NCBI RefSeq assembly: GCF_001708185.1
Contig: NZ_MDDN01000001.1
Span: 434,001-498,000, forward strand
DNA: 64,000 nucleotides
Direction of reading: 5' to 3'
Origin: Lysinibacillus xylanilyticus
GTDB taxonomy: Bacteria > Bacillota > Bacilli > Bacillales_A > Planococcaceae
A program made the translations under genes and the position numbers. The notes below the pieces were generated by a model that ran no database searches, was not told where the DNA came from, and worked only from the letters and a program-made list of their open reading frames with translations. Positions 4,508 through 38,796 of this stretch are shown here, piece after piece; the stretch's first letter is position 1, and each line of letters begins with the position of its first letter.

Positions 4508-5362
4508 CTATCCGTCTATTTGGTGATTCAATCCGATGCTTCGGCTTTTTTCCGTCGTTTTGTCGGTTCTATTCACGATTTTGGCTGCTCTATCCGTCGT
4601 TTCGTCGTTCTATTCACGATTTTGGCTGCTCTATCCGTCGTTTTAGCTTTTCCTTCCTTCGCTCGGGCTCTTCTTTCCGTCGCTTCGACTCTTCCTTCCG
4701 TCGCTCTGGTTTCTTTCCGTCGCTTTGAATCTACCTTCCGTCGTTTGGCCGGTTCTATCCACGATTTTGGCTCTTCTTTCCGTCGCTCTGGCTCTTCTTT
4801 CTGTCACTTTGGCTTCCTTCCGTCACTTTGGCGGTTCTATCCACGATTTTGGCTGTTCTATCCACGATTTTGGCGGTTCTATCCGTCGCTTTGGCGGTTC
4901 TATCCACGACTTTGGCTGCTCTATCCGTCGCTTCGGCTCTTCTTTCCGTCGCTTTAGCTTTTCCTTCCGTCACTTCGACTCTTCCTTCCGTCGCTTAGAC
5001 TCTTCTTTCCGTCGCTCTGCCTTCCTTCCGTCGCTTTAGCTTTTCCTTCCATCACTTCGACTCTTCTTTCCGTCGCTTTAGCTTTTCCTTCCGTCACTTC
5101 GACTCTTCCTTCCGTCGCTTTGCCTTCCTTCCGTCGCTTCGACTCTTCTTTCCGTCGCTGGAGTCTTCCCTTCCGCCGCTCTGCCTTCTTTCCGTCACTT
5201 TAGCTTTTCCTTCCGTCGCTTCGACTCTTCTTTCCGTCGCTGGAGCCTTCCCTTCCGTCGCTCTAGCTCTTCTTTCCGTCGCTCCAGCTCTACTTTCCGT
5301 CGCTCTAACTCTACTTTCCGGCACTCTGGCTCTTCCTTCCGCAGCTTCGACTTTTCTTCCCG
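4508..5362. repeat. Long array of about 40 imperfect 21-bp units
   Basis: The stretch between the pdp terminator and spoIIAA consists almost wholly of a 21-bp unit: a conserved core, TTCCGTCGC or TATCC(GTCG/ACGA), plus a variable filler of about 10 bp. Core starts at 5232, 5253, 5274, 5295, 5316 and 5337 are exactly 21 apart. Two flavours alternate: TTCCGTCGCTT and TATCCACGATTTTGG. Because 21 is a multiple of three, several frames stay open on both strands with a 7-residue period, but none has a convincing SD or domain, so I regard the region as non-coding. Two more units of the same core lie at 9.1 kb. Confidence 0.9.
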
Positions 5363-5428
5363 TCGCTCTGTCTTTCCCTCTCCGCCACAAAAACCTCCTT
5401 TCCACCGCTTCAACTTCCGCTTTTTAGA

Positions 5429-5474
5429 ACAAAAAAAAAGCGAGAACCCCTTTGTTAAAGAGAGTCCTCGCTTC
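5429..5474 (-). terminator. Rho-independent terminator of deoB-pdp
   Basis: On the minus strand AAGCGAG pairs with CTCGCTT around an inner imperfect stem, followed by nine T residues. It begins 8 nt after the pdp stop codon. The 21-bp array starts about 70 nt beyond it. Confidence 0.9.
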
Positions 5475-5481
5475 ATATTGT

Positions 5482-6732
5482 TTATATAATTGTAAAAGCT
5501 TGCTGTACTTTTTCGATTGTTTCCTCATCAATTTGACGATTTGAATATAAATAAGCAATCGGCTCGTCAGCACGAACACGGTCGCCTTTTTTGGCGATCA
5601 AGTGAATACCTGCATCATAATCAAGTTCAGATTCCTTTGTTAATCGACCTGCACCAAGACTAACGCTTGCTTCTCCGATTAATAGTGCATTAATCGTCTC
5701 GACAGTGCCTTCAGAAGACGCTTTGACAGCTACTTTGTTTGCTGTATCTTTTTGTACAAGATCCGCTAAATCGCCACCCTGTGCTACGATAAATTCATCA
5801 AATTTTGCAGCTGCTGAACCATCCTCTAATACTCGTTTCACAGCTGCTGTTGCTTCGGCCTCATTTACTCCTGCTGCAACCTGGTACATAAGCGAAGAAA
5901 TAATAATACATTCCTCAAGCAGATCCACATGTGTTTCATCCATACGTCCGCTTAGTAAAGCATATGCTTCTACTACTTCAAGCTTATTACCAATCATTTT
6001 ACCTAATGGATTATCCATATCACTAATATGCGCGACTACTTTACGCCCTAGCTTTTCACCAATTGCCGTCATCGTATCAGCTAAAACTTGCGCTTCTTCT
6101 TCTGTTTTCATAAATGCACCAGAGCCACATTTAACATCAAGCACAATACCGTCTGCACCACTTGCTATTTTCTTACTCATGATGGACGCGGCAATTAATG
6201 GAATTGAATCGACAGTACCCGTCACATCTCGTAATGCATACAATTTTTTGTCAGCTGGTACAAGATTACCTGTTTGACCAGCAACTGCAATTTTATGTTT
6301 ATTGACATTGTCGATAAATTCCTGTGATGAAAGCTCCGTTTTAAAGCCACGAATCGACTCTAATTTATCGATTGTACCACCTGTAATGCCTAGACCCTTG
6401 CCACTAAATTTTGCTACTGGAATATCTAGCGCAGCAATTATTGGCGTGACAATTAGTGTGACTTTATCGCCTACACCACCTGTCGAGTGTTTATCAATTT
6501 TAAACCCTTCAATAGATGTTAAATCAATAACATCACCAGATTCTATCATTGCTTTCGTTAAATAGAATATTTCATCATCTGTCATGCCTAATAAGCGAAT
6601 TGCCATTAACAGGGAGCTCGCTTGATAATCAGGAATTGAACCCGTAGTGTAGCCTTCTACGAAATACTGAATTTCAGCCTGTGATAGCGCTTTGCCCTGC
6701 TTCTTCTTTTCAAACAGCTGTGCCATATTCAT
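5482..6732 (-). CDS. pdp: Pyrimidine-nucleoside phosphorylase
   Basis: Phosphorolysis of uridine, deoxyuridine and thymidine to base plus (deoxy)ribose-1-phosphate in nucleoside salvage. It has 416 residues, slightly shorter than the B. subtilis enzyme of about 433. The family signature begins KHSTGGVGDKV at 81 and continues through KFSGKGLGITGGTIDKLES. ATG at 6732 has a run of five G 10 nt upstream. It lies 15 nt behind deoB, so the two form an operon: the pentose-1-phosphate made here is the DeoB substrate. The purine phosphorylase gene (punA) that separates them in B. subtilis is missing. Confidence 0.96.
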   Translation of the reverse strand: MNMAQLFEKKKQGKALSQAEIQYFVEGYTTGSIPDYQASSLLMAIRLLGMTDDEIFYLTKAMIESGDVIDLTSIEGFKIDKHSTGGVGDKVTLIVTPIIAALDIPVAKFSGKGLGITGGTIDKLESIRGFKTELSSQEFIDNVNKHKIAVAGQTGNLVPADKKLYALRDVTGTVDSIPLIAASIMSKKIASGADGIVLDVKCGSGAFMKTEEEAQVLADTMTAIGEKLGRKVVAHISDMDNPLGKMIGNKLEVVEAYALLSGRMDETHVDLLEECIIISSLMYQVAAGVNEAEATAAVKRVLEDGSAAAKFDEFIVAQGGDLADLVQKDTANKVAVKASSEGTVETINALLIGEASVSLGAGRLTKESELDYDAGIHLIAKKGDRVRADEPIAYLYSNRQIDEETIEKVQQAFTII

Positions 6733-6747
6733 ATCGATAGATCCCCC

Positions 6748-7929
6748 TTATTTTAAATCCCCTAAGAAACTTTTACCGAATGCTGGTGTTTCTACTTGGA
6801 AGTTTTCAGCAACTGTCGCTGCAATATCTGCAAAAGTTTCACGAAGTGCTAGCTCACTACCATCATTAAAGCGTGGTGAATAAACAATTAACGGTACATA
6901 TTCACGTGTATGATCTGTCCCAGGGAATGTTGGATCATTACCATGGTCTGCCGTAATGATTAGTAAATCATCTTCTGACAATGCCTCAGTAATTTCTGGT
7001 AAACGAGCGTCAAATTCTTGTAATGCATTACCATAACCTAGCGGATCACGTCGATGGCCAAAATTTGCATCAAAGTCCACTAAGTTTAAGAAGCTCATAC
7101 CATGGAAATCACGACGCACTACCTCTGCAAACTTATCCATACCGTCCATATTATTTTTCGTACGTACTGCATCTGTGACACCTTCACCGTTGAAAATATC
7201 AGAAATTTTCCCGATTGCTATAACATCTAAGCCTGCATCCTTTAGGACATTCATCGTTGTACGGCCAAATGGTTTTAACGCATAGTCATGACGATTAGAT
7301 GTACGTGTGAAGTTTCCTGGCGTACCGATGAATGGACGAGCAATCACACGGCCAACTAAATATTCTGGTTGCAATGTTAGCTCACGAGCAATTTCACAAA
7401 TTTTATACAGTTCCTCTAACGGAATAATTTCCTCATGTGCAGCAATTTGCAAAACAGGATCAGCAGATGTATAGACAATAATTGCCCCTGTCTCCATATG
7501 CTCCTTGCCGAAGTCCTCGATCACTTGTGTCCCACTTGCAGGTTTATTGCATAGCACTTTACGGCCTGTACGTTTTTCAAGCTCTACAATAAGCTCTGCA
7601 GGGAATCCTTCAGGATATACCTTAAACGGTTTATCAATATTTAACCCCATGATTTCCCAATGCCCTGTCATAGTATCTTTACCAACAGATGCTTCTTGCA
7701 TTTTTCCGTAAAATGCTTTTGGTTTGTCAGTAGCTTGCAGACCTTGTAACGGTTCAATGTTCGCTAAGCCGAAAGACTCCATATGTGGCATTGTAAGCCC
7801 ATTCATTTTTTCTGCGATATGTCCAAGAGTATGTGAACCCACATCTCCAAAGTTTGCTGCGTCTGGAGCTTCACCAATTCCAACTGAGTCCAATACTACT
7901 ACATGGATTTTCTTAAATGGTTTATTCAT
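6748..7929 (-). CDS. deoB: Phosphopentomutase
   Basis: Interconverts (deoxy)ribose-1-phosphate and -5-phosphate, linking nucleoside breakdown to central metabolism. Alkaline-phosphatase-superfamily metal ligands are visible in [13 protein letters not shown] (about 12-24), [14 protein letters not shown] and TADHGNDPT. 393 residues, the usual length. AGGAGG lies 8 nt before the ATG. Promoter-proximal gene of deoB-pdp; xerD lies upstream on the same strand with an 88-nt gap. Confidence 0.97.
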
Positions 7930-8017
7930 AATTGTTGCCTCCTAATCTCTTGTCTTTATTTTACCAAAAAACAGCGAAAAATAAAGGTCAGACCTCCGAC
8001 TAACGCAAATCCCTCTC

Positions 8018-8920
8018 TTAAGCGCGTGGATGGAACTGCTTATATACCTCTGATAGTCGTGATTTACTAATATGAGTATAAATTTGCGTTGTGGAAATAT
8101 CTGCATGTCCAAGCATCTCTTGCACTGCTCGTAAATCAGCACCATTTTCCACTAAATGTGTTGCAAAGGAATGACGTAATGTATGCGGCGTTAACTCATG
8201 TTGGATGCCTGCCTTTAAAGCGTGCTCCTTCATTAATTTCCAACAACCTTGCCTTGTTAAACGTTTTCCTCTTTGATTAATGAAAAACGCATCTATTTTT
8301 GGGTATTTTCCTTGTAATTGACTCCGTGCACCATCTAAATATGTGCTTAATGCGGACAGGGCGCTTTTTCCAAGTGGAATGATACGCTCCTTGCCACCCT
8401 TACCAAAAACACGGACAAAGCCCATCGTTAGGTGAATATCAGCTAAATCCAAAGCAATCAACTCACTAATGCGCATCCCTGAACCATATAATAACTCTAA
8501 CATGGCCACGTCCCGGACGCCCTGTGGTTTGCTGCGATTTGGTGCCGCTAATAAAGCTTCAATTTCTTCAATAGAGAGGATATTTGGGAGCTTTTGCTCG
8601 ATGGTTGGCATTTCTAAATGGACTGTCGGATCTGTTTCTGCTCGCTTTTCTCGCAGTAAAAATTGATGAAAACTACGAATAGAGGAGATATGGCGAGCAA
8701 CAGTACGACTTGTCTTTCCTTGCATACGCAACTGTTCTAAATGACGTAAAATGGTCATTCTCTCCACATTACGAAAATCCGACATACCTTCCGCTTCCCG
8801 CAAAAAATTCACATAATTCTCTAAGTCTCGGCGATAGGATGCTAATGTATTATCAGATAACTGCCGTTCTACCTGGATAAAATGGATATAATCCTCTATT
8901 GCATATTGAAATTCATTCAT
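8018..8920 (-). CDS. xerD: Site-specific tyrosine recombinase XerD
   Basis: Resolves chromosome dimers at dif together with XerC. 300 residues: N-terminal SAM-like core-binding domain (1-90) and C-terminal catalytic domain with the full R-K-H-R-H-Y set: R in YGSGMRISEL, K in FGKGGKERII, HTLRHSFATH, LGHADISTTQIYTH. SD AAGGGGG lies 8 nt upstream of the ATG. Its position between fur and deoB matches B. subtilis ripX/xerD; the small yqzK gene usually found between fur and xerD is absent. Confidence 0.95.
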   Translation of the reverse strand: MNEFQYAIEDYIHFIQVERQLSDNTLASYRRDLENYVNFLREAEGMSDFRNVERMTILRHLEQLRMQGKTSRTVARHISSIRSFHQFLLREKRAETDPTVHLEMPTIEQKLPNILSIEEIEALLAAPNRSKPQGVRDVAMLELLYGSGMRISELIALDLADIHLTMGFVRVFGKGGKERIIPLGKSALSALSTYLDGARSQLQGKYPKIDAFFINQRGKRLTRQGCWKLMKEHALKAGIQHELTPHTLRHSFATHLVENGADLRAVQEMLGHADISTTQIYTHISKSRLSEVYKQFHPRA

Positions 8921-9113
8921 CTTAGCGCCCCCTTACTGTCAATTATTCTCTATTTTATCACGGCTAATAGAATTGTGCTAAATCACCCTCTTATTCTGAT
9001 TGAAGATGATTAAAATACTCTACAAACGATCGTGTATAGTTGCTATATCAAATGTTTGGGTGAGATCCAATATGAAGCTTAGTGAATGCCCTTCTCTTTA
9101 TGGTGTTCTAACC

Positions 9114-9168
9114 ATTGATTCGACGGTTCTATCCGTCGCTTCGTTGATTCTATCCGTCGCTTCAGCCT
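9114..9168. repeat. Two-unit 21-bp array (TTCTATCCGTCGC core)
   Basis: TTCTATCCGTCGCTTCGTTGA is followed directly by TTCTATCCGTCGCTTCAGCC, preceded by a partial unit GATTCGACGG. The core is the same as in the large array at 4.5-5.4 kb. It lies about 55 nt beyond the fur terminator. The rest of 8921-9274 shows no gene. Confidence 0.8.
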
Positions 9169-9219
9169 TTCAGTAGAATTGAAATATTGTAGAACGAAAT
9201 AATTTGTTATTCAAACAAA

Positions 9220-9272
9220 ACAAAAAACCGCCTGATTCAATCTAAAACTTAAGATTAAAACAGACAGCTTCT
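9220..9272 (-). terminator. Rho-independent terminator of fur
   Basis: On the minus strand GCTGTCTG pairs (two G-U wobbles) with CAGGCGGT, and an inner stem TTTTAATCT/AGATTGAA extends it. A TTTTTTG tract follows. It starts immediately after the fur stop codon. Confidence 0.85.
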
Positions 9273-9274
9273 CG

Positions 9275-9739
9275 TTATTTTTCTTCATTCGATTCGTCGT
9301 TTTTATCATGACAGCGCCAGCAAATGCCGTGGAAAGTTAGTCGGTGATCCTTTATGATAAAGTTCCAACGTTTTTCCACAACGGCTTCCACATCTTCAAG
9401 TAAATCTTCTTGAATTTCATCAACCGCACCACATTCAATACAAACTAGATGATGGTGGAAATGCGCAGCTCCCTCTTGGCGTAAATCATAGCGCGATACG
9501 CCATCGCCAAAGTTGATTTTGTCGACAATTTTGAGCTCAGTTAGTAACTCTAACGTTCTATAGACAGTAGCTAGACCAATCTCTGGTGCCTTTTCTTTCA
9601 CTAAAAGGTAAACATCTTCTGCACTAAGGTGATCCTCTTCGTGCTCAAGCAGTACAGCAACTGTTGCTTCTCGCTGCGGCGTCAGCTTATAACTAGCACT
9701 ATGCAACTGTTTTTTTATACGATCAATTCGGCTTTCCAT
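9275..9739 (-). CDS. fur: Ferric uptake regulator Fur
   Basis: Iron-dependent repressor of 154 residues. N-terminal winged helix (KLTPQREATVAVL, GLATVYRTLELL), metal-binding AHFHHHLVCIECG near 92-104 and a second CxxC (CWRC) near the C-terminus, i.e. the structural Zn site. Fur, PerR and Zur look alike by sequence. I choose Fur because xerD-fur-spoIIM-nudF is the B. subtilis fur neighbourhood. It has its own promoter and terminator, so it is likely monocistronic. The acidic tail after CWRC is variable in the family. Confidence 0.9.
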   Translation of the reverse strand: MESRIDRIKKQLHSASYKLTPQREATVAVLLEHEEDHLSAEDVYLLVKEKAPEIGLATVYRTLELLTELKIVDKINFGDGVSRYDLRQEGAAHFHHHLVCIECGAVDEIQEDLLEDVEAVVEKRWNFIIKDHRLTFHGICWRCHDKNDESNEEK

Positions 9740-9763
9740 GTGACGCCCCCCTAAACTCTTTCC

Positions 9764-9793
9764 ATTATACCAAAGGAGTAAATCCTATTACAA
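9764..9793 (-). promoter_or_regulatory. SigA-type promoter of fur
   Basis: On the minus strand TTGTAA (-35) and TATAAT (-10) are separated by 18 nt, about 30 nt upstream of the fur start. No clear palindromic Fur or PerR box was seen. Confidence 0.6.
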
Positions 9794-9862
9794 GATAGTG
9801 TATAGATTTCAAATAAGCTTTTGTATGTTTTTACCTGATGTAATTTACGCGAAAAATCTCTA

Positions 9863-10375: not shown

Positions 10376-10448
10376 AAACATGCTCCTTTTCTATCAAGGT
10401 TTGTACAGCTTATGCTCGTCCTCTTCTATTATGCTAAAGTTTATTTTC

Positions 10449-10985: not shown

Positions 10986-11061
10986 TGACTATAACCTCGC
11001 TTGTTCTTCAGATATGTTCATTGTACCATTACAAGTAGAGAAATCGAAGGAGGTCATTCGC

Positions 11062-12428: not shown

Positions 12429-12499
12429 AAATACCCTTTGTTATGAAAGAGTTGTTACTACAGCTTATAATAAAAAGTAAGAGAAGGGAGCAATTTAAA

Positions 12500-12738
12500 A
12501 TGAAACAAATCCAATTAAACTCTCCTGAATTTAATCGTGTACTTAAAAATTTACAATTAGAAAATTTATCCCTAACTCCAACGCTTCAAAAAAAGTACTT
12601 AAGATCGTTAATTCTGGTATACAAATTTCACCTACCATTATTAAGGGAGTTCTGAATAATGTCGGTGAAATTGAGTATTATTCCGATAAAAACAAGAATC
12701 TTTCCGATAAATCTCAGAATCTTTCCGATAAAACATAA
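12500..12738 (+). pseudogene. Small gene split by a -1 frameshift at A_AAA_AAG
   Basis: ATG at 12500 has SD AAGGGAG 9 nt upstream. The zero frame reads MKQIQLNSPEFN...LTPTLQKK and then stops at 12655 after an atypical tail. At 12589-12595 lies A AAA AAG in frame. A -1 slip there moves into a frame that continues naturally (VLKIVNSGIQISPTIIKGVL) to a stop at 12738, giving about 79 residues. The shape LSLTP...SGIQISPTIIKGVL loosely recalls the helical VbhA-type antitoxin domain, but no Fic partner is near. The last about 15 residues are encoded by the 21-bp array. It is either a frameshifted pseudogene or a case of programmed or polymerase slippage; the sequence alone cannot tell. Confidence 0.5.
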
Positions 12739-12780
12739 AATTGTTCCGATAAATCTCGAAATCTTTCCGATAAAACATAA
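12681..12780. repeat. Five-unit exact 21-bp array (TTCCGATAAA core)
   Basis: TTCCGATAAA starts at 12681, 12702, 12723, 12744 and 12765, exactly 21 bp apart; the fillers differ (AACAAGAATCT, TCTCAGAATCT, ACATAAAATTG). It sits directly beyond the yqkE terminator on the minus strand, between convergent genes. Confidence 0.9.
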
Positions 12781-12816
12781 AAAACAGTGAATCCGCAAAA
12801 TTTGGATTCACTGTTT
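12781..12816 (-). terminator. Terminator of thiolase-yqkE, probably bidirectional
   Basis: AAAACAGTGAATCC and GGATTCACTGTTTT form a perfect 14-bp stem with a 9-nt loop, with T-rich flanks on both strands. It begins 3 nt after the yqkE stop. Confidence 0.93.
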
Positions 12817-12819
12817 TCT

Positions 12820-13086
12820 TTAAAATTTTGAGCCTTTATCGCCGTATTCGTTGAGTAGTTCTTCAAACGATTTGTTTTTTTCACGTTGTTTGCGTTCAAA
12901 TGCTAGCTTTGCTTGACGCTCTTCCTCAGCGGCCTGTTCTTTCGCTGTTAAATCTTGTTTTGCAGCTTTTAGTTTGGCAAGCACGTCACCGCCAAGCTGA
13001 TCCGCTAATGTAACGGCCTCCTGCTTTGGTAAGCTGGCTTTCATGCCATCATTTGCATGTTGCTGCTGTTTTCGTTTCTTTCCCAT
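12820..13086 (-). CDS. YqkE-like small charged protein (DUF3886)
   Basis: 88 residues, very rich in K, E and Q. After MGKKRKQQQ comes ADQLGGDVLAKLKAAKQDL, then a predicted charged helix KEQAAEEERQAKLAFERK and a conserved end FEELLNEYG. It resembles B. subtilis YqkE, whose function is not known, and sits between the yqkF-like and yqkD-like genes as expected. The ATG at 13086 has SD AAGGTG; the longer frame from 13128 starts inside the spacer after the thiolase gene. Follows the thiolase gene by 25 nt on the same strand. Confidence 0.75.
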   Translation of the reverse strand: MGKKRKQQQHANDGMKASLPKQEAVTLADQLGGDVLAKLKAAKQDLTAKEQAAEEERQAKLAFERKQREKNKSFEELLNEYGDKGSKF

Positions 13087-13111
13087 TTTGTAATTCACCT
13101 TCTTATCGACT

Positions 13112-14296
13112 TCACGGGCGTTTGACAACTGTTGCTACGCCTTGCCCACCACCGATACATAATGTTGCGAGACCTGTTTTCGCATCACGCTTTTCCATTT
13201 CATGTAAAAGCGTGACTAAAATGCGCGCACCACTTGCACCAATTGGGTGACCAAGAGCAATTGCTCCCCCGTTGACATTTAGTTTATCATGATTAAAGCC
13301 TAGTTCGCGATCCACAGCAATAGATTGAGCTGCAAATGCTTCATTCGCTTCAACTAAATCTATATTATCTAACGTCACATCAGCCTTTGCCAATGCCTTT
13401 TTTACTGCCGTTACTGGACCAGTTCCCATAATAGCTGGATCAACCCCTGCACTTGCATTTGCTGTAATTTGCGCCATTGGTTGAATGCCTAACTCTACCG
13501 CTTTTTCTTTCGACATCACCACTACAGCCGCTGCACCATCGTTAATACCTGAAGCATTTGCCGCTGTTACAGTGCCTTCCTTTTTAAAGGCAGGTCGTAG
13601 TTTAGATAGAGACTCTCCAGTAACCCCATTACGCGGGAACTCATCTTGTTTGAAAACAATAGGATCTCCCTTGCGCTGTGGAATTTCCACAGCTACAATC
13701 TCATCATTAAACTTCCCTGCTGCAATTGCCGCTTCCGCACGCTGTTGTGAACGTGCTGCAAAAGCGTCTTGTTCTTCTCGTGAAATTTCATAGGCATCAC
13801 ATAAATTTTCTGCTGTAATACCCATATGGTAATCATTAAATGCACACCATAATCCGTCATGAATCATCGTATCAACTACTTTTTGATCCCCCATGCGGAA
13901 GCCTTCTCGTGCATTTTTTAATACATACGGTGCTTGGCTCATATTTTCAAAGCCACCTGCAACGATAATATCCGCATCGCCTGCTAAAATAGCCTGTGTC
14001 GCTAAGTGAACTGCTTTTAGTCCTGAGCCACAAACTTTGTTAATTGTTAATGCTGATACTTGATGTGGTAAGCCTGCTGCAATTGCTGCTTGACGAGCTG
14101 GGTTTTGACCAAGTCCAGCCGATAAGACATTCCCCATAATGACCTCGTCGACTTGTTCACCTGCTACGCCAGCACGTGCTAATGCTTCTTTAATAACAAT
14201 GCTCCCTAATTTTGTCGCTGCTACGTCTTTTAATGTTCCTTGGAATGAACCAATAGCTGTACGTACAGCACTCACTATTACAACCTCTTTTGACAT
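13112..14296 (-). CDS. Acetyl-CoA C-acetyltransferase (thiolase)
   Basis: Biosynthetic-type thiolase of 394 residues that condenses two acetyl-CoA or cleaves acetoacetyl-CoA. The acyl-acceptor cysteine is in [12 protein letters not shown] (about 88); [17 protein letters not shown] and the catalytic CIGGGQG complete the active site. A longer frame opens at 14341, but GGGGAG lies 7 nt before the ATG at 14296 and [16 protein letters not shown] is the family N-terminus. It could act in mevalonate, butanoate or polyhydroxyalkanoate metabolism; no pathway partner is adjacent. Could equally be named thlA, atoB or mmgA. Confidence 0.93.
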
Positions 14297-21079: not shown

Positions 21080-21196
21080 TTATCAGCGATATTGCTTGGG
21101 TTATCAGCGATTTCGATCTTTTATCAGCGATTCTACCTTGCTTATCAGCGATTTTCGTCTTTTATCAGCGATTCTACCTAGCTTATCAGCGATTTT
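21080..21196. repeat. Six-unit 20-21 bp array (TTATCAGCGATT core)
   Basis: TTATCAGCGA starts at 21080, 21101, 21121, 21142, 21162 and 21183: spacings 21, 20, 21, 20, 21, close to exactly two turns of B-DNA. Fillers come in two kinds, TTCTACCT(T/A)GC and TTTCGTCT. It lies about 20 nt beyond the terminator of the minus-strand HAD gene and about 40 nt after liaR. Confidence 0.9.
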
Positions 21197-21211
21197 CGTC
21201 TGTTTTCCAAA

Positions 21212-21247
21212 AAATACGAAACTGCATTTCTACCAATGCAGTTTCTG
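21212..21247 (-). terminator. Terminator of the HAD gene
   Basis: GAAACTGCATT and AATGCAGTTTC form an 11-bp stem with a 6-nt loop. On the minus strand it is followed by GTATTTTTTGG. It begins 9 nt after the HAD stop. Confidence 0.88.
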
Positions 21248-21255: not shown

Positions 21256-21906
21256 TTAACCAAGAAGTTCTTTAATTTCATTTACACTGTTAACTATATA
21301 TGTTGCTTGTGCATCCGTTAATTCTTCGAGTGAGCCATAGCCAAAAGTAACACCGATAGAATCAATTTGATTTTCATGTGCCCCAACAATATCGTATTTT
21401 CGATCTCCAATCATCATAAATTGATTGTTATCCACTTCATTAAAATGTTCGCGTACAAATGCGATAATCTCTCCTTTTGCGGATCGTGTACCATCAAGAT
21501 TGCTACCTGCAACAAGGTCAAAAAAATGTTCAAGGTTGAAATATTTTAAAATCTGTTCGGCAAATAAAGTTGGCTTTGATGTAGCAATTGCTAATCTATA
21601 TCCCTGTTGCTTTAAATCGGCTAACAAAGCTGGAATATTTTCGTACAGTTTATTCTCAAACATCCCTCTTTCCGTGAATCGTTCCCGGTAATCGCTAATA
21701 GCTTGCTCAATTTGCGCATCATTAAATCCATAAATTTCACGAAAAGATACTTGTAATGGCGGTCCTATAAAACTTTCAAGTTCATCTAAATCGCTTACTT
21801 CGATATCTGCCTTTTGTAATGCGTATTGAACTGATTTCGTTATCCCTATCTTCGGATCAGATAATGTTCCATCTAAATCAAATAAAACAACGCTATATTT
21901 CTTCAT
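21256..21906 (-). CDS. HAD-superfamily phosphatase (PGP / 5'-nucleotidase-like)
   Basis: 216 residues with all HAD motifs: nucleophile FDLDGTLSDP (about 9-18), motif II ATSKP, lysine in SAKGEI and motif IV MIGDRKYDIVGA. An alpha-helical cap lies after the first motif. The IGITKSVQYAL and FIGPPLQVSF segments are usual in HADs annotated as phosphoglycolate phosphatase or purine 5'-nucleotidase. Substrate cannot be told from sequence. ATG at 21906 is 8 nt after AAGGAG; a GTG at 21909 is the alternative. Confidence 0.85.
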   Translation of the reverse strand: MKKYSVVLFDLDGTLSDPKIGITKSVQYALQKADIEVSDLDELESFIGPPLQVSFREIYGFNDAQIEQAISDYRERFTERGMFENKLYENIPALLADLKQQGYRLAIATSKPTLFAEQILKYFNLEHFFDLVAGSNLDGTRSAKGEIIAFVREHFNEVDNNQFMMIGDRKYDIVGAHENQIDSIGVTFGYGSLEELTDAQATYIVNSVNEIKELLG

Positions 21907-21937
21907 CACAAGCTCTCCTTATAAAAAAATTACTTTA

Positions 21938-25599: not shown

Positions 25600-25772
25600 A
25601 AGGCCAACTGAATAAAGATAATGCCTCCGGCGGATGTCACGGATTTTGAAAGGAGTTAATATAAGAATGTTAGCCTAAAACCTTCGCATCCTGTGAAAAC
25701 GGCTAACTGACCTGCATCTTGCAGGCCTAAGCCCAATTCAAAATCCGGACGCAATTACGCTGAGGAGTAATT
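25600..25772. repeat. Palindromic dispersed element in tkt-ynzC spacer
   Basis: GGATTTTGAA (near 25641) and TTCAAAATCC (near 25738) bracket about 90 nt with internal complementary words (CCTGCA/TGCAGG). It ends in the inverse of the GGCGTAATTGCGTCCGGA word found at 16.4 kb and, degenerate, at 4.4 kb. No coding frame. Rest of 25409-25789 is the tkt promoter region. Confidence 0.65.
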
Positions 25773-29930: not shown

Positions 29931-29949
29931 TGATCATAACTTTGCTTAA

Positions 29950-30751: not shown

Positions 30752-30784
30752 TTTATCCCCTCCATGATCCACAAGATTTACGAC

Positions 30785-31769: not shown

Positions 31770-31806
31770 ATAGCCTATTAGAAAATACTTCTAACAGGCT
31801 TTTTCA
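31770..31806 (-). terminator. Terminator of the DUF2339 gene
   Basis: AGCCTATTAGAA and TTCTAACAGGCT form a stem with one mismatch and a 5-nt loop; T-rich flanks on both sides. The remaining spacer 31538-31769 is AT-rich and shows no gene. Confidence 0.8.
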
Positions 31807-31817
31807 AACGATCTCTA

Positions 31818-33935
31818 TTATTTTTTCAACAATCGTCCCGACAGCAGCAACCCAATTCCACCAACCGTCATAAACAGTATTGCTCTAATTAGTAAATCGA
31901 GGGCCGACAAATCGAAGAATATAAGTTTTACAAAAGCAATAATTAAGATGATAAAACCAGTTAGGCGTAATGCTCGTAAATGACGACCTGAGCTAAGCCA
32001 TAGTGCAACGCTTGCTGTAAGGAATAATGTAATTGTTGAGAACACAATACTTAACTTCCAATCAAGTATCCCATTATATGCAAGTTGGAATATTAGCCCC
32101 TTAACAGCTATCATCGTAAGCACAACGCCTGCACTTACAATTGGGTCCAAAAGTTTCTCTAGTTGCACTTGATAGGTTTGATAAATGCGCCCCTTCTTTA
32201 GTAAATCGACAATAATTGCTACGATAACCGCAATATACACGATTCTTGTCACTATATTTAACCACGCGACACCTTGCATATTGTATGGTATAGCTACAAG
32301 CATTAGTGTAAAGAGAAGGAAAAATACACTAAGAGCAGGTGTTAATGCACGCCCTTTATATTTTATTGGTACTAGAAGCGATCCGACAAATAATAAAGCG
32401 ATTATTATACACATCAGATGCGGAATATTACTAACATCTGCAAAATAAGTTGCATCAATCTTTCCGATATAAGCTAAGAAATAACTAGTTGTTATTAAAG
32501 CTAAAATATCAATCACATACATATCCTTCATGATCTGTTCAAATACAGTCAGTGTCTCTTTTGGACGTCTCGCATATAAATAAATAATCAGGAGATAAAT
32601 TCCAGGCATCACCAAACTCGCATGATTTATGCTGAAAAATGGTGCAGGATCATGAATACTAAAGTTTATGGCAAGTACAATCATAAATAAGAATGAGCCG
32701 ACAACCTTCATGATACTTGCTCGTAAACGTAAACTCATCATAACACCTGCAAAGACGATGAACGGGATCAATATGTGATCCACTTTCCCTGGTAAATTCA
32801 TAACTAGTAGCGTATTAAATAGTGTAATAAACGCGAGTGTTACGGCACTATCAAATGCCTCCTGCCATTTTTGCTTATAGCCATAACCCGCTAAAATTGC
32901 AAATAAACTGACTATTACGAGTAACAGTGCTTCTCCAAATTCAATTGTTGTAATAATAAAATTCATGAGCAATAAACTGAATAAACCAAGGCTAAATTGC
33001 ATACCAACATGAGTATATTTCCATGTAGACGCTACATTATATAAACGACACCAACTCGTGTTAAAAATAGATAGCATAACAAGCAAACCTATTGCAAAAA
33101 CAACTTGATTGTCATTATTCATAAATGTTTCTATGCTGATCGCTAGCACAGTGAAAAAGGTTGCGATATAGAGTGCCCACTTCTGCTTGTGTTGATGAAT
33201 GACAAATTGCAACATCGTAAACAGTACAATCACATAGATTAAAATAATAACAGGACTAAAATCCATATATTCTAGTAAATAAGGTAGTAATAGTGAGGTA
33301 AATGCTACAAATACTGTTAGCACCTCATTTTTCTTTAAGAAACTAATAGCAATACCATAGCCGATATAAACCATCGCTATCACAAGCGCAAGTGTTAAAC
33401 CTATTATTTCATATAATATCGCGCCAGCCGCTGTCGTTAATATCCCAACAATAAATGCTCCGCCATATAACGAAATCGTAACAGCTGATGATCCTACTTT
33501 TTTGCGCTCTAAAACATAAGCTATTAAGGTTAAGGCAAGCGATAATACATAGGCAAGGATGATTTTAACTTCGTTCGATAAATAGCCATAATCACTTACT
33601 AGCTTTAGACCCCAAAGCACTCCCATCACTAAAATAACCATAAATACTTTTGGTAGTGCCCCCATAATACGTTCCTCTAACGTTCGCTGTGGCTGCACCT
33701 TTTTTTCTGGTGCTGACATTTGCTTTGGATTTGGCTCCGAATTTAGTTTTGGATTCGGTTTTGGCTTTAGGTTTGGCGCAGGCTTTAGCGTAGATTGCTC
33801 AATCATGGATTTTTCGGCACTCAGTGTACTTGTTTTTGCAACTGATTGTTGACACTTCACGGCCTCTAACTCTTTCCGTAAATCCATCATTTCTTGCTCG
33901 AGTTTGACAATCCTCTGCTCCATTTCAAGCGACAT
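31818..33935 (-). CDS. Large polytopic membrane protein (DUF2339)
   Basis: 705 residues. An N-terminal coiled coil (about 1-27, EQRIVKLEQEMMDLRKELEA), a low-complexity linker rich in P, K and N (PNLKPKPNPKLNSEPNPK, about 53-70), then some 18-20 membrane helices to the C-terminus with almost no loops. This layout is that of DUF2339 proteins, of unknown function. RSEETERK-like catalytic motifs are absent. Single gene, own terminator. Confidence 0.8.
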   Translation of the reverse strand: MSLEMEQRIVKLEQEMMDLRKELEAVKCQQSVAKTSTLSAEKSMIEQSTLKPAPNLKPKPNPKLNSEPNPKQMSAPEKKVQPQRTLEERIMGALPKVFMVILVMGVLWGLKLVSDYGYLSNEVKIILAYVLSLALTLIAYVLERKKVGSSAVTISLYGGAFIVGILTTAAGAILYEIIGLTLALVIAMVYIGYGIAISFLKKNEVLTVFVAFTSLLLPYLLEYMDFSPVIILIYVIVLFTMLQFVIHQHKQKWALYIATFFTVLAISIETFMNNDNQVVFAIGLLVMLSIFNTSWCRLYNVASTWKYTHVGMQFSLGLFSLLLMNFIITTIEFGEALLLVIVSLFAILAGYGYKQKWQEAFDSAVTLAFITLFNTLLVMNLPGKVDHILIPFIVFAGVMMSLRLRASIMKVVGSFLFMIVLAINFSIHDPAPFFSINHASLVMPGIYLLIIYLYARRPKETLTVFEQIMKDMYVIDILALITTSYFLAYIGKIDATYFADVSNIPHLMCIIIALLFVGSLLVPIKYKGRALTPALSVFFLLFTLMLVAIPYNMQGVAWLNIVTRIVYIAVIVAIIVDLLKKGRIYQTYQVQLEKLLDPIVSAGVVLTMIAVKGLIFQLAYNGILDWKLSIVFSTITLFLTASVALWLSSGRHLRALRLTGFIILIIAFVKLIFFDLSALDLLIRAILFMTVGGIGLLLSGRLLKK

Positions 33936-34023
33936 TCAATCATCCACCCCACTTAATCATTTTTCAACATTATAACATATTTACCATTGTTGCAAAATTA
34001 CACTTTTGTTTCATTTTTACTTT

Positions 34024-34275
34024 TTATCTAGGTCTACGATACATTAAAGCACGTTCACTATCACTGGTTCCCCTTGTAGTTGGATCTACGACAACTCCCA
34101 TTAAAACAAGAATCGATAAAACAATATTAATAATGGACGTTAGCTGCGCACTCATTGCACTCGTTAAATCATAGCCAAAAATAGCTGCTACTTGCTGTGC
34201 GAGTAATAATATCAATGAAAATAGCGACAGTAAAAATGGTTTATGCAGAAGACGGATTCTCCAGTTAATTCTCAT
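34024..34275 (-). CDS. Phage holin, phi LC3 family-like
   Basis: 83 residues: a basic start MRINWRIRLLHKPF, two membrane helices (LLSLFSLILLLAQQVAAIFG, TSIINIVLSILVLMGVV) and the highly typical end DPTTRGTSDSERALMYRRP. Phi LC3-type holins permeabilise the membrane for endolysin release. No endolysin or phage gene is adjacent, so it may be a domesticated holin. Confidence 0.85.
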   Translation of the reverse strand: MRINWRIRLLHKPFLLSLFSLILLLAQQVAAIFGYDLTSAMSAQLTSIINIVLSILVLMGVVVDPTTRGTSDSERALMYRRPR

Positions 34276-34433
34276 AAACGCTCACCTCCCCCCTTCTCAA
34301 TCACATTATATGCTCCGTGGTTACATGACACATATGCAAAAATGGAGCATCCAACATGAATTTACAGAAATTTTCCTTTATCTCGCTGTCTTCACAATTA
34401 GGAGGGAATTCTGCTCAATACTCACTTTTTAGG

Positions 34434-34462
34434 GCAAAAAAAACACCCCTAAGGATGTTAAT
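34434..34462 (-). terminator. Terminator of the SnoaL-like gene
   Basis: On the minus strand AACATCC and GGGGTGTT pair with a small bulge, followed by eight T residues. It touches the stop codon of the gene. Confidence 0.7.
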
Positions 34463-34880
34463 TAATTTTATTACGGTTGAGTTGTTTTTCAATACCAGCC
34501 CGATCAATCTGAATCCAATATTCTGCTATCTTTTCATCTTCAATTCTATAAACTGCGCTTGCTATTTCAATAACAGGAAGACTTGTTGGCTGATATCCAT
34601 CAACTTTTCCAACATGTGTACCAACTTGTTTCCATCGTACATATACTTTATTTTCTTGTACCATAAACTCTTGGATTTCTAATGAAAAATCGCCATATGC
34701 TTCTACCATTTCTTGTACATGGTCAGCATAATCTTGGGGAGTTCTTAAAACCGTTAACTCCTCTTCAGAAATAACTTGGTGTGCCAATACTTGTTCTGCC
34801 ATTAACTCTGTTGCGTAATCTGGATTATTCCCTGAACGTACTTCTTCAAAAAATTTCTTCACAATTTGTTCTGGTGTCAT
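34458..34880 (-). CDS. SnoaL-like / NTF2-fold protein
   Basis: 140 residues in the alpha+beta cone fold seen in ester-cyclase-like SnoaL proteins: VKKFFEEVRSGNNPDYATEL, then HQVISEEELTV, VRWKQVGTHVGKVDGYQPT and EYWIQIDRAG. Polyketide cyclases are the name-givers, but most bacterial members have unknown roles. SD GGAGGGTTCAA-like before the ATG. Single gene. Confidence 0.75.
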   Translation of the reverse strand: MTPEQIVKKFFEEVRSGNNPDYATELMAEQVLAHQVISEEELTVLRTPQDYADHVQEMVEAYGDFSLEIQEFMVQENKVYVRWKQVGTHVGKVDGYQPTSLPVIEIASAVYRIEDEKIAEYWIQIDRAGIEKQLNRNKIN

Positions 34881-35362
34881 TTGAACCCTCCGCTATAATT
34901 TACTATATATTCTGACGAGAATCACTTCATCTCCCCATGCTTAATAATAATTCGAGAGACAAGATATTGGAACCATATTCTACAAATTCCACTCTCCACT
35001 TCATGGAACTTATAATGACCTTGACTAGCTTTCACACAATGCCCTCTGCAGTTGTACTGATTGATAACTTTCTTGAAATTTTGCTGAAGGTTCCATTTTT
35101 ATATGTTTTATCAGGTATGTTTATTAAACATTTTATTCATTCAAATATATTCAAGAACACTAATTTCACTGCGGGCTACATCAGTTGAAAACTGTAATAT
35201 ATTAGTAAAATATCAACAAAAAACAACCTTTTATCGGTCAATATATATTTTCCTAATCTACACACCTGATGTTTTATCATAGATGCTACGTTCATATAAA
35301 TAGTTAAGATGCATCTTGCTTAGCGCTGATGCCTTCAAATTTGCATATAGTGGGTGATCGAA
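34881..35362. other. Intergenic region before the acyltransferase gene
   Basis: About 480 bp, AT-rich. A plus-strand frame at 34937-35188 (83 codons) has no SD, no recognisable domain and no close neighbour on its strand; I do not call it. No hairpin with T-run or tandem repeat was seen. Confidence 0.4.
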
Positions 35363-36364
35363 ATGGTGTATGAGTGGAATGTTTTAAGGGCAATTGCCTG
35401 CTTATCTATTGTATTATTACACGCTACAACTAATACAGAAATTATTAACGGATACATCGAAAATCCGTACTATCAATTTTTCAGATTATTATTATGTTTC
35501 GCGACGCCAACATTTATTCTATTATCTATTATTATTTTAGCAAAGCGCTACCCAGTCGAACTACCTCCTAACTTTTTATGGCGACGTTTTCAATTTGTTT
35601 ATATTCCATTTGTTGCTGCTAGTATTTTGTATGCAGTATATGCAGCTCTTCATTATGATGAAAGCTTTTGGAATGCACTGTATCGCCATATTCTCTTAGG
35701 AGATTTCTCGGGATGGTTTGTCATGACAATCTTTCAATTATACATTCTGTTCTTTATCATAAAAAAGTATCAGCTATCAAGCATATGGCTAACACCAATT
35801 ATGTTGGCACTTGGTATTTTATATATGACGCTCGCAAAGCTGAATGGTGAATTCTTTATAGTAAACGATAATCTTGTTCGTTTACTATTTATTGGTTGGC
35901 TTCCTTATTTCGCAATTGCTTATTTAATCGGTACGCATTATCGATGGATTACCTTATATATTAGTAAGTACAAATTCTTTACGCTAGTTTTCGTTGTTCT
36001 TTCAGCATCTATACTGGCGATCAACTATTATTTGGGAGCCACTGAAATCACATCTAGACGATTAGATATGATGTTGCTTATTATTTCAATAACTTTATGC
36101 ATTTTAGCATTTGGTCAAATTGTGCCGAAGCTAAAAATCGTTAATTTAGTAAGTCAATATTCATTTGGTATATTTTTGATCCATTGGCTTGTTCAAGAAT
36201 TTTTAGTCCCTTATACAGCACAAATACCTACTACCTCTCTTCAAGTCATCGCGCTATTTCTTTCGAGCGTAGTTATCTGTATGTTGATTATAAAAATCAT
36301 TTCATTTTTACCTTATAGTGCTTATCTAATTGGCAAGGCACACATTAAAAAGCCATCTCAGTAA
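35363..36364 (+). CDS. Membrane acyltransferase, acyltransferase-3 family
   Basis: 333 residues with about ten membrane helices. RAIACLSIVLLHATT near the start carries the conserved His of the family; a second conserved stretch is FGIFLIHWLVQEFLVP (about 270). Such enzymes O-acetylate cell-wall or surface polymers. ATG at 35363 follows a GGGTGATC SD; a GTG at 35354 is too close to it. It ends 7 nt inside the end of yhhQ on the other strand. Target unknown. Confidence 0.82.
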   Translation: MVYEWNVLRAIACLSIVLLHATTNTEIINGYIENPYYQFFRLLLCFATPTFILLSIIILAKRYPVELPPNFLWRRFQFVYIPFVAASILYAVYAALHYDESFWNALYRHILLGDFSGWFVMTIFQLYILFFIIKKYQLSSIWLTPIMLALGILYMTLAKLNGEFFIVNDNLVRLLFIGWLPYFAIAYLIGTHYRWITLYISKYKFFTLVFVVLSASILAINYYLGATEITSRRLDMMLLIISITLCILAFGQIVPKLKIVNLVSQYSFGIFLIHWLVQEFLVPYTAQIPTTSLQVIALFLSSVVICMLIIKIISFLPYSAYLIGKAHIKKPSQ

Positions 36365-36993
36365 TGAGATGGCTCTATGCTTTTACGCTTGTCAAATTTC
36401 CGTGCCACAAAAACTAACCCGTAAACAAGTGGCGTTGCTACAATCGACGCTAAAAATTTAAACAGATACTGTGTTATAAACAATGTCAGTAATACTTTAA
36501 ATGGCATTACACCATAAAAGGCTATCGTAATAAATAGTGCCGTATCGATGAGCTGACTTACCATCGTAGACGCATTGTTTCGAAGCCAAAGCTTACCGTC
36601 GCCATGCTTTTCCTTAAATTTACTAAATATCATGACATCCAAATTTACACTAACCGTATACGCAACAAGGCTTGCAATAATGACACGCATACTGCCACCA
36701 AGAATTATCTCAAACTCCTTTTGATGAGCAAAGGCTTGTGCAGGTGGTAGCTCAATGGCAATAGCAATAAAGCATGCCGCAAACACTTGTGCTATAAGCC
36801 CCGTTCTTACCGTGCGACTGCCCGCTTCCCTACCGTACACTTCGCAAATTACATCAATAAGAGGATACGTGAAAATAATAAGTATTGCTGCTGCCGGAAG
36901 TATCATCCATTCGCCTATACTAAACACTTTAACAGCTAAAACATTTGCCAAAATTAAAAAGCCAACAAACAACCCATTTAAATAATACAGCAT
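36358..36993 (-). CDS. yhhQ: Queuosine precursor transporter (YhhQ/VUT family)
   Basis: 211 residues with six or seven membrane helices. Family features: YLNGLFVGFLILANVLAVKVF, YPLIDVICEVYGREAGSR and a later DVMIFSKFKEKHGDGKLWLR. YhhQ imports preQ0/preQ1. Its ATG overlaps the queF stop (TGATG), so the two are coupled and share the preQ1 riboswitch upstream of queF. A TTG at 36996 is an alternative start. Confidence 0.93.
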   Translation of the reverse strand: MLYYLNGLFVGFLILANVLAVKVFSIGEWMILPAAAILIIFTYPLIDVICEVYGREAGSRTVRTGLIAQVFAACFIAIAIELPPAQAFAHQKEFEIILGGSMRVIIASLVAYTVSVNLDVMIFSKFKEKHGDGKLWLRNNASTMVSQLIDTALFITIAFYGVMPFKVLLTLFITQYLFKFLASIVATPLVYGLVFVARKFDKRKSIEPSHY

Positions 36994-37493
36994 CAACGAT
37001 TATCCACCTTTTCAGGATACAAATCGTGGTTCATCAAACGATGTTCCGCCATCTTTTCATATTTTGTGCCTGGGCGGCCATAGTTGCACCAAGGATCAAT
37101 AGACAAGCCACCGCGCGGCGTAAACTTGCCCCATACCTCAATATAACGCGGTTCGATCAGCTTAATTAGATCATTCATGATGATATTGACACAGTCCTCA
37201 TGAAAGTCTCCGTGATTACGGAAGCTAAATAAATAAAGCTTTAGTGACTTACTCTCTACTAGCTTTTTATCTGGAATAAAAGAAATATACATTGTTGCAA
37301 AGTCAGGCTGCCCTGTCATTGGACAAAGACTTGTAAATTCTGGACAATTAAATTTTACAAAAAAATCGTTTCCCGTATGCAAATTATCGACTGCCTCAAG
37401 TACTTCCGGTGAGTACTCAAATAAATACTTTGTGTTTTGGTTACCAAGTAGTGTTAAATCTTGTAATCCTTGTTCATCTGTTCTTCCTGCCAT
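36993..37493 (-). CDS. queF: 7-cyano-7-deazaguanine (preQ0) reductase
   Basis: Reduces preQ0 to preQ1 with NADPH in queuosine synthesis. 166 residues, the short unimodular form. Catalytic Cys in [18 protein letters not shown] (about 48-65), and the QueF motif [20 protein letters not shown]. First gene after the preQ1 riboswitch; coupled to yhhQ. queC, queD and queE are not in the window, so import of preQ0 by YhhQ may matter. Confidence 0.96.
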
Positions 37494-37540
37494 AAAAATG
37501 CCTCCTCAAGTTGTGAGAAGTCCATTATGCGTGAAACCTA

Positions 37541-37583
37541 ATAAAAAAAAATCGCCATATCCGCATTTTTGGGACATGGCGTA
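37541..37583 (-). terminator. Attenuator hairpin of the preQ1 riboswitch
   Basis: On the minus strand CGCCATGTCC pairs with GGATATGGCG (one mismatch), followed by nine T residues. It lies between the aptamer and queF, so ligand binding probably triggers termination. Confidence 0.85.
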
Positions 37584-37595
37584 AATGACGTCATC

Positions 37596-37633
37596 CATAG
37601 TTTTTTATAGAGGGTATGCGCTATGAACCTCTT
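37596..37633 (-). ncRNA. PreQ1 class I riboswitch aptamer
   Basis: On the minus strand AGAGGTTC, then ATAGCGCATA, CCCTCT and ATAAAAAACTA match the preQ1-I consensus: a P1 stem GAGG/CCTC and an A-rich tail that forms the pseudoknot. About 100 nt upstream of queF with an attenuator between them. Recognised by eye. Confidence 0.93.
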
Positions 37634-37639
37634 TTATAT

Positions 37640-37952
37640 TCGCTAGTTATCTTAACTTAATGAATGCAATCCGTCAACTAATTTTTTTCATATCCAATGC
37701 ATTGACAAAAACACTTTCAAGTTATACTGTTTTACAGCTCCTTTCCTACTCTTCAGCCTTTTGTTGCATGTTGTCTTTTATCGTTTAGCAACTATCAGTG
37801 GTTACAATTTTGCTCAATTCCGATTATTATGATTATTTTCAAGTTGTCTACTTCTTTGTTTGAACTATTATCAAATATGTCTACCTTACTCTATCATAAT
37901 CCGAAATGTTTCTGTAACTCTCGGTCAACTTGAGGATATTCGAAATACTTTC
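37640..37952. other. Spacer upstream of the preQ1 riboswitch
   Basis: About 310 bp without a plausible ORF. It should hold the queF promoter; a minus-strand TTGACA-like box is not obvious. Nothing repetitive seen. Confidence 0.35.
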
Positions 37953-37995
37953 AAAAAAAGTGATGCCAAGCCCCATTTAAAGGACTTGGCATTTT
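37953..37995 (-). terminator. Terminator of the 38.0-kb hypothetical gene
   Basis: TGCCAAGTCC and GGGCTTGGCA pair on the minus strand with a short loop; CACTTTTTTTG follows. About 25 nt after the stop codon. Confidence 0.85.
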
Positions 37996-38020
37996 AGCTG
38001 AATTAACCACGGTTATCATT

Positions 38021-38560
38021 TTAGTTTGTATAGTCAATGGAATTGGCGATGTCGACTAACACTTCAGGTGTCACCTTTTCGGAAACCCTTTTATCAATCC
38101 ACAGCATATATTGCCAATCTCCTCTTTCAAAAGCGAGTACATTGAAACCTGATATTTCCATATAGATTGAAGTCGTTCCGTTTTTCAATTCGAATGTCTT
38201 TACTATATAGTCCTTTTTAGATAGTAACTTAAAATGATTAGGTCGAACAGTTATTTTATAATGATGCTCCGGAAGTCGATTATTAATAAATGTAACTTCA
38301 TAAAAATCATTCCTATCACCATCAAGATTATTAAATCGACCAAAATGATGCGTAAAACTAATAGGAGGTACTCGAAGTGGTAGCTTTAGTTCTTGATGAA
38401 AGTGCCGCTCAAAATCGGAGGCAGCTGCTTCAACCGTTTTATAGCCTATTTCAGGATAAATTTCTTCATAAGGACTGAACGAATCATTTAGATAGGCATT
38501 ATTTGGTTGAGAAAATAATAAATAAAAGGAACTTAAGCAGAGAGAAAAAATTCTGTCCAT
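38021..38560 (-). CDS. Probable secreted protein, unknown family
   Basis: 179 residues. A hydrophobic N-terminus (IFSLCLSSFYLLFS) looks like a signal peptide or anchor. The rest is soluble, mixed alpha/beta with many aromatic residues (FTHHFGRFNNLDGDRNDFYE, WQYMLWIDKRVS). I do not recognise the family. Preceded by a GAGGTGATAAAA SD. Single gene with its own terminator. Confidence 0.6.
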   Translation of the reverse strand: MDRIFSLCLSSFYLLFSQPNNAYLNDSFSPYEEIYPEIGYKTVEAAASDFERHFHQELKLPLRVPPISFTHHFGRFNNLDGDRNDFYEVTFINNRLPEHHYKITVRPNHFKLLSKKDYIVKTFELKNGTTSIYMEISGFNVLAFERGDWQYMLWIDKRVSEKVTPEVLVDIANSIDYTN

Positions 38561-38740
38561 TTTATCACCTCAGTATCACTTTAGGCGTAGTTTTTCCCAA
38601 CACAATGAATTTATGCAGCAAGTTGTAGTATGTTCACAGTTATTTATTCTTTTTTATCATAACTAGATCCAACTTGTTTTAAAGCGTGTGAAATAGATAT
38701 TTTTTGCACCGGAAGTCTATATGCAAAGAATCACCTCTAG

Positions 38741-38796
38741 TACGCGGGTATTTCACCCTTTTTACGCGGATATTCTCTCTGTCACGCGGATTTAAA
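38741..38796. repeat. Three-unit array (ACGCGGATAT core)
   Basis: ACGCGG starts at 38742, 38764 and 38784: spacings 22 and 20, average 21. Contexts: TACGCGGGTATTTC, TACGCGGATATTCT, CACGCGGATTTAAA. It lies directly beyond the yjiH terminator on the minus strand. Confidence 0.75.

What the first reader, a model, noticed from the sequence alone, without database searches (positions are those of the whole stretch)
4508..38796. Five helically phased microarrays, all just beyond minus-strand terminators
Seen: arrays with a short core every 20-22 bp (mostly exactly 21) at 4508-5362, 9114-9168, 12681-12780, 21080-21196 and 38741-38796. The cores differ: TTCCGTCGC (two loci), TTCCGATAAA, TTATCAGCGATT, ACGCGGATAT. 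In every case the array starts within about 75 nt beyond the rho-independent terminator of a minus-strand gene (pdp, fur, yqkE, HAD, yjiH-like). Inference: 21 bp is two helical turns, so every core faces the same side of the DNA, as would suit cooperative protein binding, DNA bending, or protection of gene ends from read-through. I know of no named element family that fits.
Basis: partly seen in the sequence, partly recalled or inferred. Interest (0 to 1): 0.85.

Follow-up and report, generated by a model that had tools for sequence, protein, structure and literature searches.

The report
Phased 21-bp arrays at gene ends
Some relatives of Bacillus carry many short DNA arrays just past the ends of genes, in which a fixed core word recurs every two turns of the double helix while the bases between vary, as if an unknown DNA-binding protein lines up there.

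Summary
Of 39 intergenic gaps in the window, exactly the five named hold a core repeated at 20-22 bp (shuffled mean 0.09, maximum 2). In 864 kb of the host genome, noncoding recurrence peaks at lag 21 (95 places; 0-15 at each other lag from 18 to 24). Several core families share the period; cores are nearly constant, spacers vary. Other genera carry other cores at 20-21 bp, sometimes at the same gene ends. Arrays lie nearer the stop than the start codon in 58 of 63 codirectional gaps and run with the upstream gene in 50 of 63; a terminator-like hairpin precedes 44 of 60 (controls 86 of 150). Stretches of 19 genus members without family A show one noncoding lag-21 place in 373 kb. Single cores of A, B and C are about as rare as chance. 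Best reading: cooperative DNA-binding arrays, protein unknown. Selfish repeats and gyrase-type wrapping stay open. Static curvature and RNA structure fail as general explanations. Eight literature searches listed no description; one paper was seen in passages.

The parts
4508..5362 (-). Array of about 38 units, family A (AGCGACGGAAAGAAG on the sense strand -) with interspersed A2 units (ATCGTGGATAGA); 21-bp steps with some 19
5431..5473 (-). Terminator-like hairpin and T tract of pdp, between its stop codon (5482) and the array
   Evidence: sequence; -20.3 kcal; missed by the stricter detector
5482..6732 (-). pyrimidine-nucleoside phosphorylase (pdp), upstream of the array on the sense strand
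   Evidence: TIGR02644 E=1.3e-157
9114..9168 (-). Small array, 2-3 units of family A/A2
9216..9274 (-). Terminator-like hairpin of fur
9275..9739 (-). fur
   Evidence: NF051892
12681..12780 (-). Array of 5 units, family C (TTTATCGGAA on the sense strand -)
12774..12819 (-). Terminator-like hairpin of the yqkE-like gene, T tract touching the array
12820..13128 (-). DUF3886 (yqkE-like) gene
   Evidence: PF13025
21080..21196 (-). Array of 6 units, family B (AATCGCTGATAA on the sense strand -), between convergent genes
21208..21245 (-). Terminator-like hairpin of the HAD gene
21256..21909 (-). HAD-family hydrolase gene
   Evidence: PF13419
38741..38796 (+). Array of 3 units, ACGCGGATA; resembles the CGGATAAA arrays found in other genera; opposite orientation to the other four by the GATA-bearing strand
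38797..38846 (-). Terminator-like hairpin of the Gate-domain membrane-protein gene
38850..40310 (-). Gate-domain (nucleoside recognition) membrane-protein gene
   Evidence: PF07670

Best explanation
These are non-coding, DNA-level, cooperative protein-binding arrays placed directly after transcription units. Shown: a core of 9-12 bp recurs at about two helical turns; the core is nearly constant while the spacer varies; the core words of A, B and C are not found singly more than chance gives; the arrays sit just past stop codons, often past a terminator-like hairpin, and mostly run with the upstream gene; some genus members have many of them and others almost none. Inferred: a sequence-specific protein of the array-bearing lineages binds each core, neighbours touch on one face of the DNA, and the resulting row marks the gene end, holding off read-through or antisense polymerase or managing the supercoils that build up there. 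The protein is not identified. A two-block layout with different cores near and far from the gene suggests a polar complex.
For: Selecting by core inflates core conservation, but a plain 21-bp walk over 27 units of six arrays gives 93-100% agreement per core base and 37-93% per spacer base. Single copies outside arrays: A 1 (expected 1.4), B 2 (1.3), C 9 (6.4), A2 3 (1.2). Placement and orientation; control repeat; hairpins. Three array pairs taken as orthologous between G070 and G071: core 2 of 108 sites changed, variable spacer 12 of 84, remaining tag 5 of 60. One noncoding lag-21 place in 372,702 bases of 19 genus members without family A, against 95 in 864 kb of the host. Two-block arrays: in 5 of 5 arrays with both words the ATCGCTGATAAA block comes first, with an 18-bp junction in 4 and 39 bp in the fifth.
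Against: No binding protein, binding data or transcript data. Several core families coexist in one genome, which one protein does not explain simply. 19-bp steps (55 of 252 in family A) are about a fifth of a turn out of phase. Orientation is loose for family B (10 ++, 7 --, 11 convergent, 4 divergent). All 58 hits in G032 and all 60 A hits in G001 turn with the half of the chromosome, so gene and replication direction are not separated there; family C in G001 does not follow the halves. Slippage does act: TRF also finds 40-42-bp dimers and unit orders recur at different loci. 11 of 12 spacer changes between G070 and G071 switch between AT and GC, against selection on a GC rhythm in the spacer. 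Arrays were pooled from related genomes and are not independent.
Confidence: 0.5

Rival explanations
1. Selfish or mutational repeats: lineage-specific tandem repeat families that spread among gene-end intergenic regions by recombination or an unknown mobilising enzyme and are tolerated there, without host function.
For: Some C and B arrays share flanking words at several loci; C unit orders recur at different loci; each family is in 7 or 8 of 32 genus genomes; array length differs at the same gene end; another dispersed element occurs in 28 copies in the same kind of place.
Against: Slippage alone would copy core and spacer alike, yet cores are kept and spacers vary at fixed spacing; the word TTATCAGCGATT/AATCGCTGATAA is shared by Lysinibacillus-group genomes and genomes of another genus; the arrays are oriented with the gene in 50 of 63 while the other dispersed element is 10 to 8; the same gene ends carry different cores in different species (chance of such coincidence not computed).
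Confidence: 0.27
2. Strong gyrase (or HU-like) wrapping sites: AT/GC alternation every 10.5 bp makes the array easy to wrap, so gyrase is drawn to the end of the transcription unit to remove positive supercoils, as a counterpart of BIME-2 elements of E. coli.
For: The E. coli gyrase motif has phased 10-bp GC variation, and gyrase sites are enriched downstream of highly transcribed operons and in BIME-2 (PMC6379681, passages seen).
Against: The wave is missing in A, Cg and L072a; 11 of 12 spacer changes between G070 and G071 switch AT/GC class; cores are nearly constant words, whereas the gyrase motif is loose; genus members almost without arrays presumably have gyrase too (inference). The same paper says gyrase attraction to downstream regions seems not hard-wired.
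Confidence: 0.12
3. RNA-level elements: read-through or separately started transcripts carry repeated motifs for an RNA-binding protein or Rho.
For: Orientation follows the upstream gene in 50 of 63; family A is purine-rich on the sense strand; three S arrays and one two-block array fold better than shuffles (z -1.4 to -2.9).
Against: A terminator-like hairpin usually precedes the array (44 of 60); the five A, B, C and Cg arrays tested show no excess RNA structure on either strand (z -0.4 to 1.9); near-exact two-turn spacing has no obvious reason in RNA.
Confidence: 0.08

Closest known systems
Plasmid iterons and partition-site repeats (definition from my own knowledge)
   Same: Direct repeats of about two helical turns with a conserved core, suited to a row of protein molecules on one face
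   Different: Dispersed over the chromosome (19 loci by the exact family A pattern alone, my count), just past genes, several core words per genome; the ten window genes beside the five arrays include no rep or par gene
REP/BIME elements
   Same: Dispersed intergenic repeats; a gyrase link is conceivable
   Different: Direct repeats at a fixed 20-21-bp period; no fold excess in the A, B and C arrays tested
Bacterial minisatellites and short tandem repeats (recalled)
   Same: Tandem units; copy number varies between species; dimers of units are duplicated
   Different: Spacers vary while core and period are kept; the same period with different cores in different genera

Membership tests
Iteron / partition-site arrays | Direct repeats of 17-22 bp | tested here: met
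Iteron / partition-site arrays | rep or par gene next to the array | tested here: not met
   window only: ten neighbours are phosphorylase, Fur, XerD, SpoIIAA-like, VanZ, DUF3886, response regulator, HAD, Gate protein and one without match (NCBIfam for ten, Pfam for eight)
Iteron / partition-site arrays | Bound by a Rep or ParB-like protein | not testable with these tools
   no binding data
REP/BIME | Palindromic units able to form stem-loops | tested here: not met
   RNA folding of nine arrays: A, B, C, Cg no excess; S and the two-block array some; the 38741 array was not folded
REP/BIME | Gyrase binding | not testable with these tools
   only the 10.5-bp GC wave was computed
Neutral slippage minisatellite | Whole unit equally conserved | tested here: not met
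   core bases 93-100%, spacer 37-93% in an unselected walk; 2 of 108 against 12 of 84 changes; one search agrees but selects on the core
Statically curved DNA | Predicted curvature above ordinary intergenic DNA | tested here: not met
   13 of 14 arrays within the host intergenic range (ranks 0.03-0.82), Cg above all; two S arrays exceed most of their column permutations (0.06, 0.10) (recalled wedge values)
Protein-coding heptad repeat | Spacing a multiple of 3 | tested here: not met
   19- and 20-bp steps are common in A and B
Known Rfam RNA | Match at gathering score | tested here: not met
   5 window matches, none at an array

The most novel reading that the evidence does not exclude
A new class of bacterial gene-end element: lineage-specific proteins, each with its own core word, assemble in two-turn register on arrays directly past transcription terminators and form polar nucleoprotein blocks that separate neighbouring transcription units; the recognised word changes between lineages while the helical architecture, and even some of the genomic sites, persist.
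Probability: 0.35. Interest if true: 0.92.

Novelty: new variant of a known kind. Interest (0 to 1): 0.74.

Why it matters
If a host protein binds these arrays, they would be a natural, easily assayed case of helix-phased cooperative binding at gene ends and a handle on how some Firmicutes separate neighbouring transcription units. Different cores at the same gene ends in different species would let one watch a DNA-binding protein and its sites change together. Even if the arrays prove selfish, repeats that keep a two-turn period while their spacers drift need an explanation that slippage alone does not give.

Tried and rejected
Static curvature: wedge model with values recalled from Bolshoy 1991; only the Cg array lies above host intergenic DNA. 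RNA structure: no excess for A, B, C and Cg; hairpins seen by eye in one S array do not carry over to those families. Rfam: nothing at arrays. Coding heptads: broken by 19- and 20-bp steps. DnaA boxes, CsrA (GGA), Chi and Rho-type readings were considered from memory only and not tested. Plasmids: blastn of two window arrays, no match (BLAST's low-complexity filter is on). Viral contigs: family B pattern 0, family A pattern in 7 contigs, not examined. Papers: some searches ran (46, 58 and 60 returned no paper; some asked about BIME and iterons); I saw listings, and passages of one paper. The library lacks most subscription journals.

Limits. Genes were called by my own codon-score script, so contexts marked -- or -+ may partly be missed genes. 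Dropped before the counts: chains of fewer than 3 units, 3 arrays without two flanking genes, and 5 of 65 arrays with a sense-strand gene upstream that overlapped it or lay over 400 nt away (the 21 C arrays were not tested there). The terminator control used 130 nt, the arrays their own distance. Several's 20 rows are two-unit or low-complexity repeats and were not used as arrays. One search showed 39 of 80 loci. Gap classes for the null come from the host genome only. Two different host samples measure 864 kb: 464 + 400 kb; one 864-kb piece plus 400 kb from then on.

Full report
What is there. All five arrays exist as described. In the window's 39 noncoding gaps a scan for three successive 8-mers at 20-22 bp finds exactly these five; 100 shuffles give 0.09 on average, maximum 2. 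The neighbours were checked: pdp, Fur, a DUF3886 protein, a HAD hydrolase and a Gate-domain membrane protein.

Genome-wide. In 864 kb of the host genome (174,661 noncoding bases; 12-mers with at most one mismatch, low-complexity words left out) recurrence at lag 21 is seen in 95 noncoding places, against 0, 15, 7, 4, 3 and 4 at lags 18, 19, 20, 22, 23 and 24, with harmonics at 42 (61) and 63 (45); coding regions show the usual multiples of three. Exact patterns find 74 family A, 17 family B and 36 family C pairs in the whole genome, and none for the same patterns read backwards.

The unit. A core of 9-12 bp is nearly constant; the rest varies widely in B, S and Cg and less in A and C. Neighbour spacing: A 195 at 21, 55 at 19, 2 at 20; B 278 at 21, 69 at 20, 5 at 22-23; C 78 of 84 at 21; S 88 of 88 at 21; Cg 115 at 21 and 2 at 19; G072 17 at 20 and 1 at 22. 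S and the other word of those genomes (GCTGATAAA) differ by one base and are mixed in that row. The genomes with S (G070, G071, G073, G138; genus code g5) are unnamed; that they are Sporosarcina is my guess. G032 is Cytobacillus gottheilii by its locus L092. A walk in 21-bp steps that does not select on the core gives the same contrast over 27 units. Single cores outside arrays: A 1 (1.4 expected), B 2 (1.3), C 9 (6.4), A2 3 (1.2).

Relatives. In the genus, A is in 8 of 32 genomes, C in the same 8, B in 7; G013 has its own word in 16 pairs and G030 one such pair. One stretch of up to 20 kb from each of 19 genus members without A shows a single noncoding lag-21 place (and 4 at lag 42) in 372,702 bases; one of them, G021, has one B pair. 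No tree was built; the loci with family A past pdp have pdp 93-94% identical to the window's, the other Lysinibacillus loci L058-L069 88-90%. Of 150 genomes searched in the order, 9 hold CGGATAAA three times at 19-23 bp. Around fur, other cores at 20-21 bp appear in L066, L072, L092, L093 and L119 and L078.

Same gene ends, different cores (39 of 80 loci shown). Past pdp: family A in the window and L059, L061, L062, L067, L068, another word in L072. Past yqkE: C in the window, L062 and L068, other words in L066 and L078. Past fur: A/A2 in the window, another word in L093. How often chance would give this was not computed.

Placement. For 106 arrays with two called neighbours (85, 21 C arrays; related genomes pooled, one gap with two arrays) contexts on the sense strand are ++ 50, convergent 30, -- 13, divergent 13. 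In codirectional gaps 58 of 63 are nearer the stop end (median 98 against 306 nt) and 50 of 63 run with the gene; against gap classes of the host sample convergent gaps are over- and divergent gaps under-represented (p=1e-4). By first-listed family, A is 12 ++ and 3 convergent of 15, C 10 ++, 8 convergent, 3 --, 3 divergent of 24, B 10 ++, 11 convergent, 7 --, 4 divergent of 32. A control repeat of the host genome (28 copies, 18 in codirectional gaps) is nearer the stop in 12 of 18 and oriented 10 to 8; host arrays are nearer the stop in 11 of 11. A terminator-like hairpin lies between stop and array in 44 of 60 against 86 of 150 array-free gene ends (p=0.04); the first core follows the T tract by a median of 34.5 nt. 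In G032 (58 of 58 hits) and for A in G001 (60 of 60) orientation also flips between the two halves of the chromosome, so replication direction is a live alternative there; C in G001 is mixed within the first half.

DNA rhythm. Mean profiles give shares of 0.45 (B), 0.37 (C), 0.64 (S), 0.30 (A2), 0.14 (A), 0.09 (Cg). Against selection for it, 11 of 12 spacer changes between G070 and G071 switch between AT and GC. In E. coli the gyrase motif has phased 10-bp GC variation and gyrase sites lie downstream of transcribed operons (PMC6379681, passages). Predicted static curvature is ordinary in 13 of 14 arrays.

Polarity. Five arrays of the S-bearing genomes hold both ATCGCTGATAAA and ATCGACGATAAA; in all five the first block comes first on the sense strand, with an 18-bp junction in four and 39 bp in the fifth; some are probably orthologous. 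In A arrays the A2 units lie further from the gene in 8 of 10 (one of these level to two decimals; two slightly the other way; six of the ten lie past pdp in different species).

Interpretation. A kept core and step with freer spacers argue against plain slippage; two-turn spacing after terminator-like hairpins argues for DNA rather than RNA; the rarity of single cores argues for cooperative use. The most likely mechanism is a row of protein molecules on one face of the DNA at the gene end. That a protein exists, what it is and what it does are inference. Selfish repeats are the strongest rival; gyrase-type wrapping is possible.

Noticed in passing
L183:11039, L184:5122, L187:19822, L188:16807, L191:909: Two-block arrays: ATCGCTGATAAA units at 21 bp, an 18-bp junction (39 in L184), then ATCGACGATAAA units at 21 bp.
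   Followed up: partly
L264 (minus strand) and L266, C arrays: C arrays pass from TTATCGGAA units into TTATCGCC and then TCACC units further along.
   Followed up: no
host genome, e.g. left of C1:501800; 28 merged copies in 1.264 Mb: A dispersed intergenic element with CTTCGCTTTCGCACAGAG repeats, sometimes next to arrays.
   Followed up: partly
G072 loci L195-L197; L119:9042-9137: Arrays with a 20-bp rather than 21-bp period.
   Followed up: no
family A and Cg arrays: The second commonest step is 19, not 20 or 22; helical phase alone does not explain it.
   Followed up: no
window 25659-25725, 61354-61417, 61527-61591, 47078-47253, 37591-37637: Three Bacillaceae-1 RNAs, a cobalamin riboswitch and a PreQ1 riboswitch.
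   Followed up: no
L274-L280: Seven viral contigs hold one family A pattern match each.
   Followed up: no
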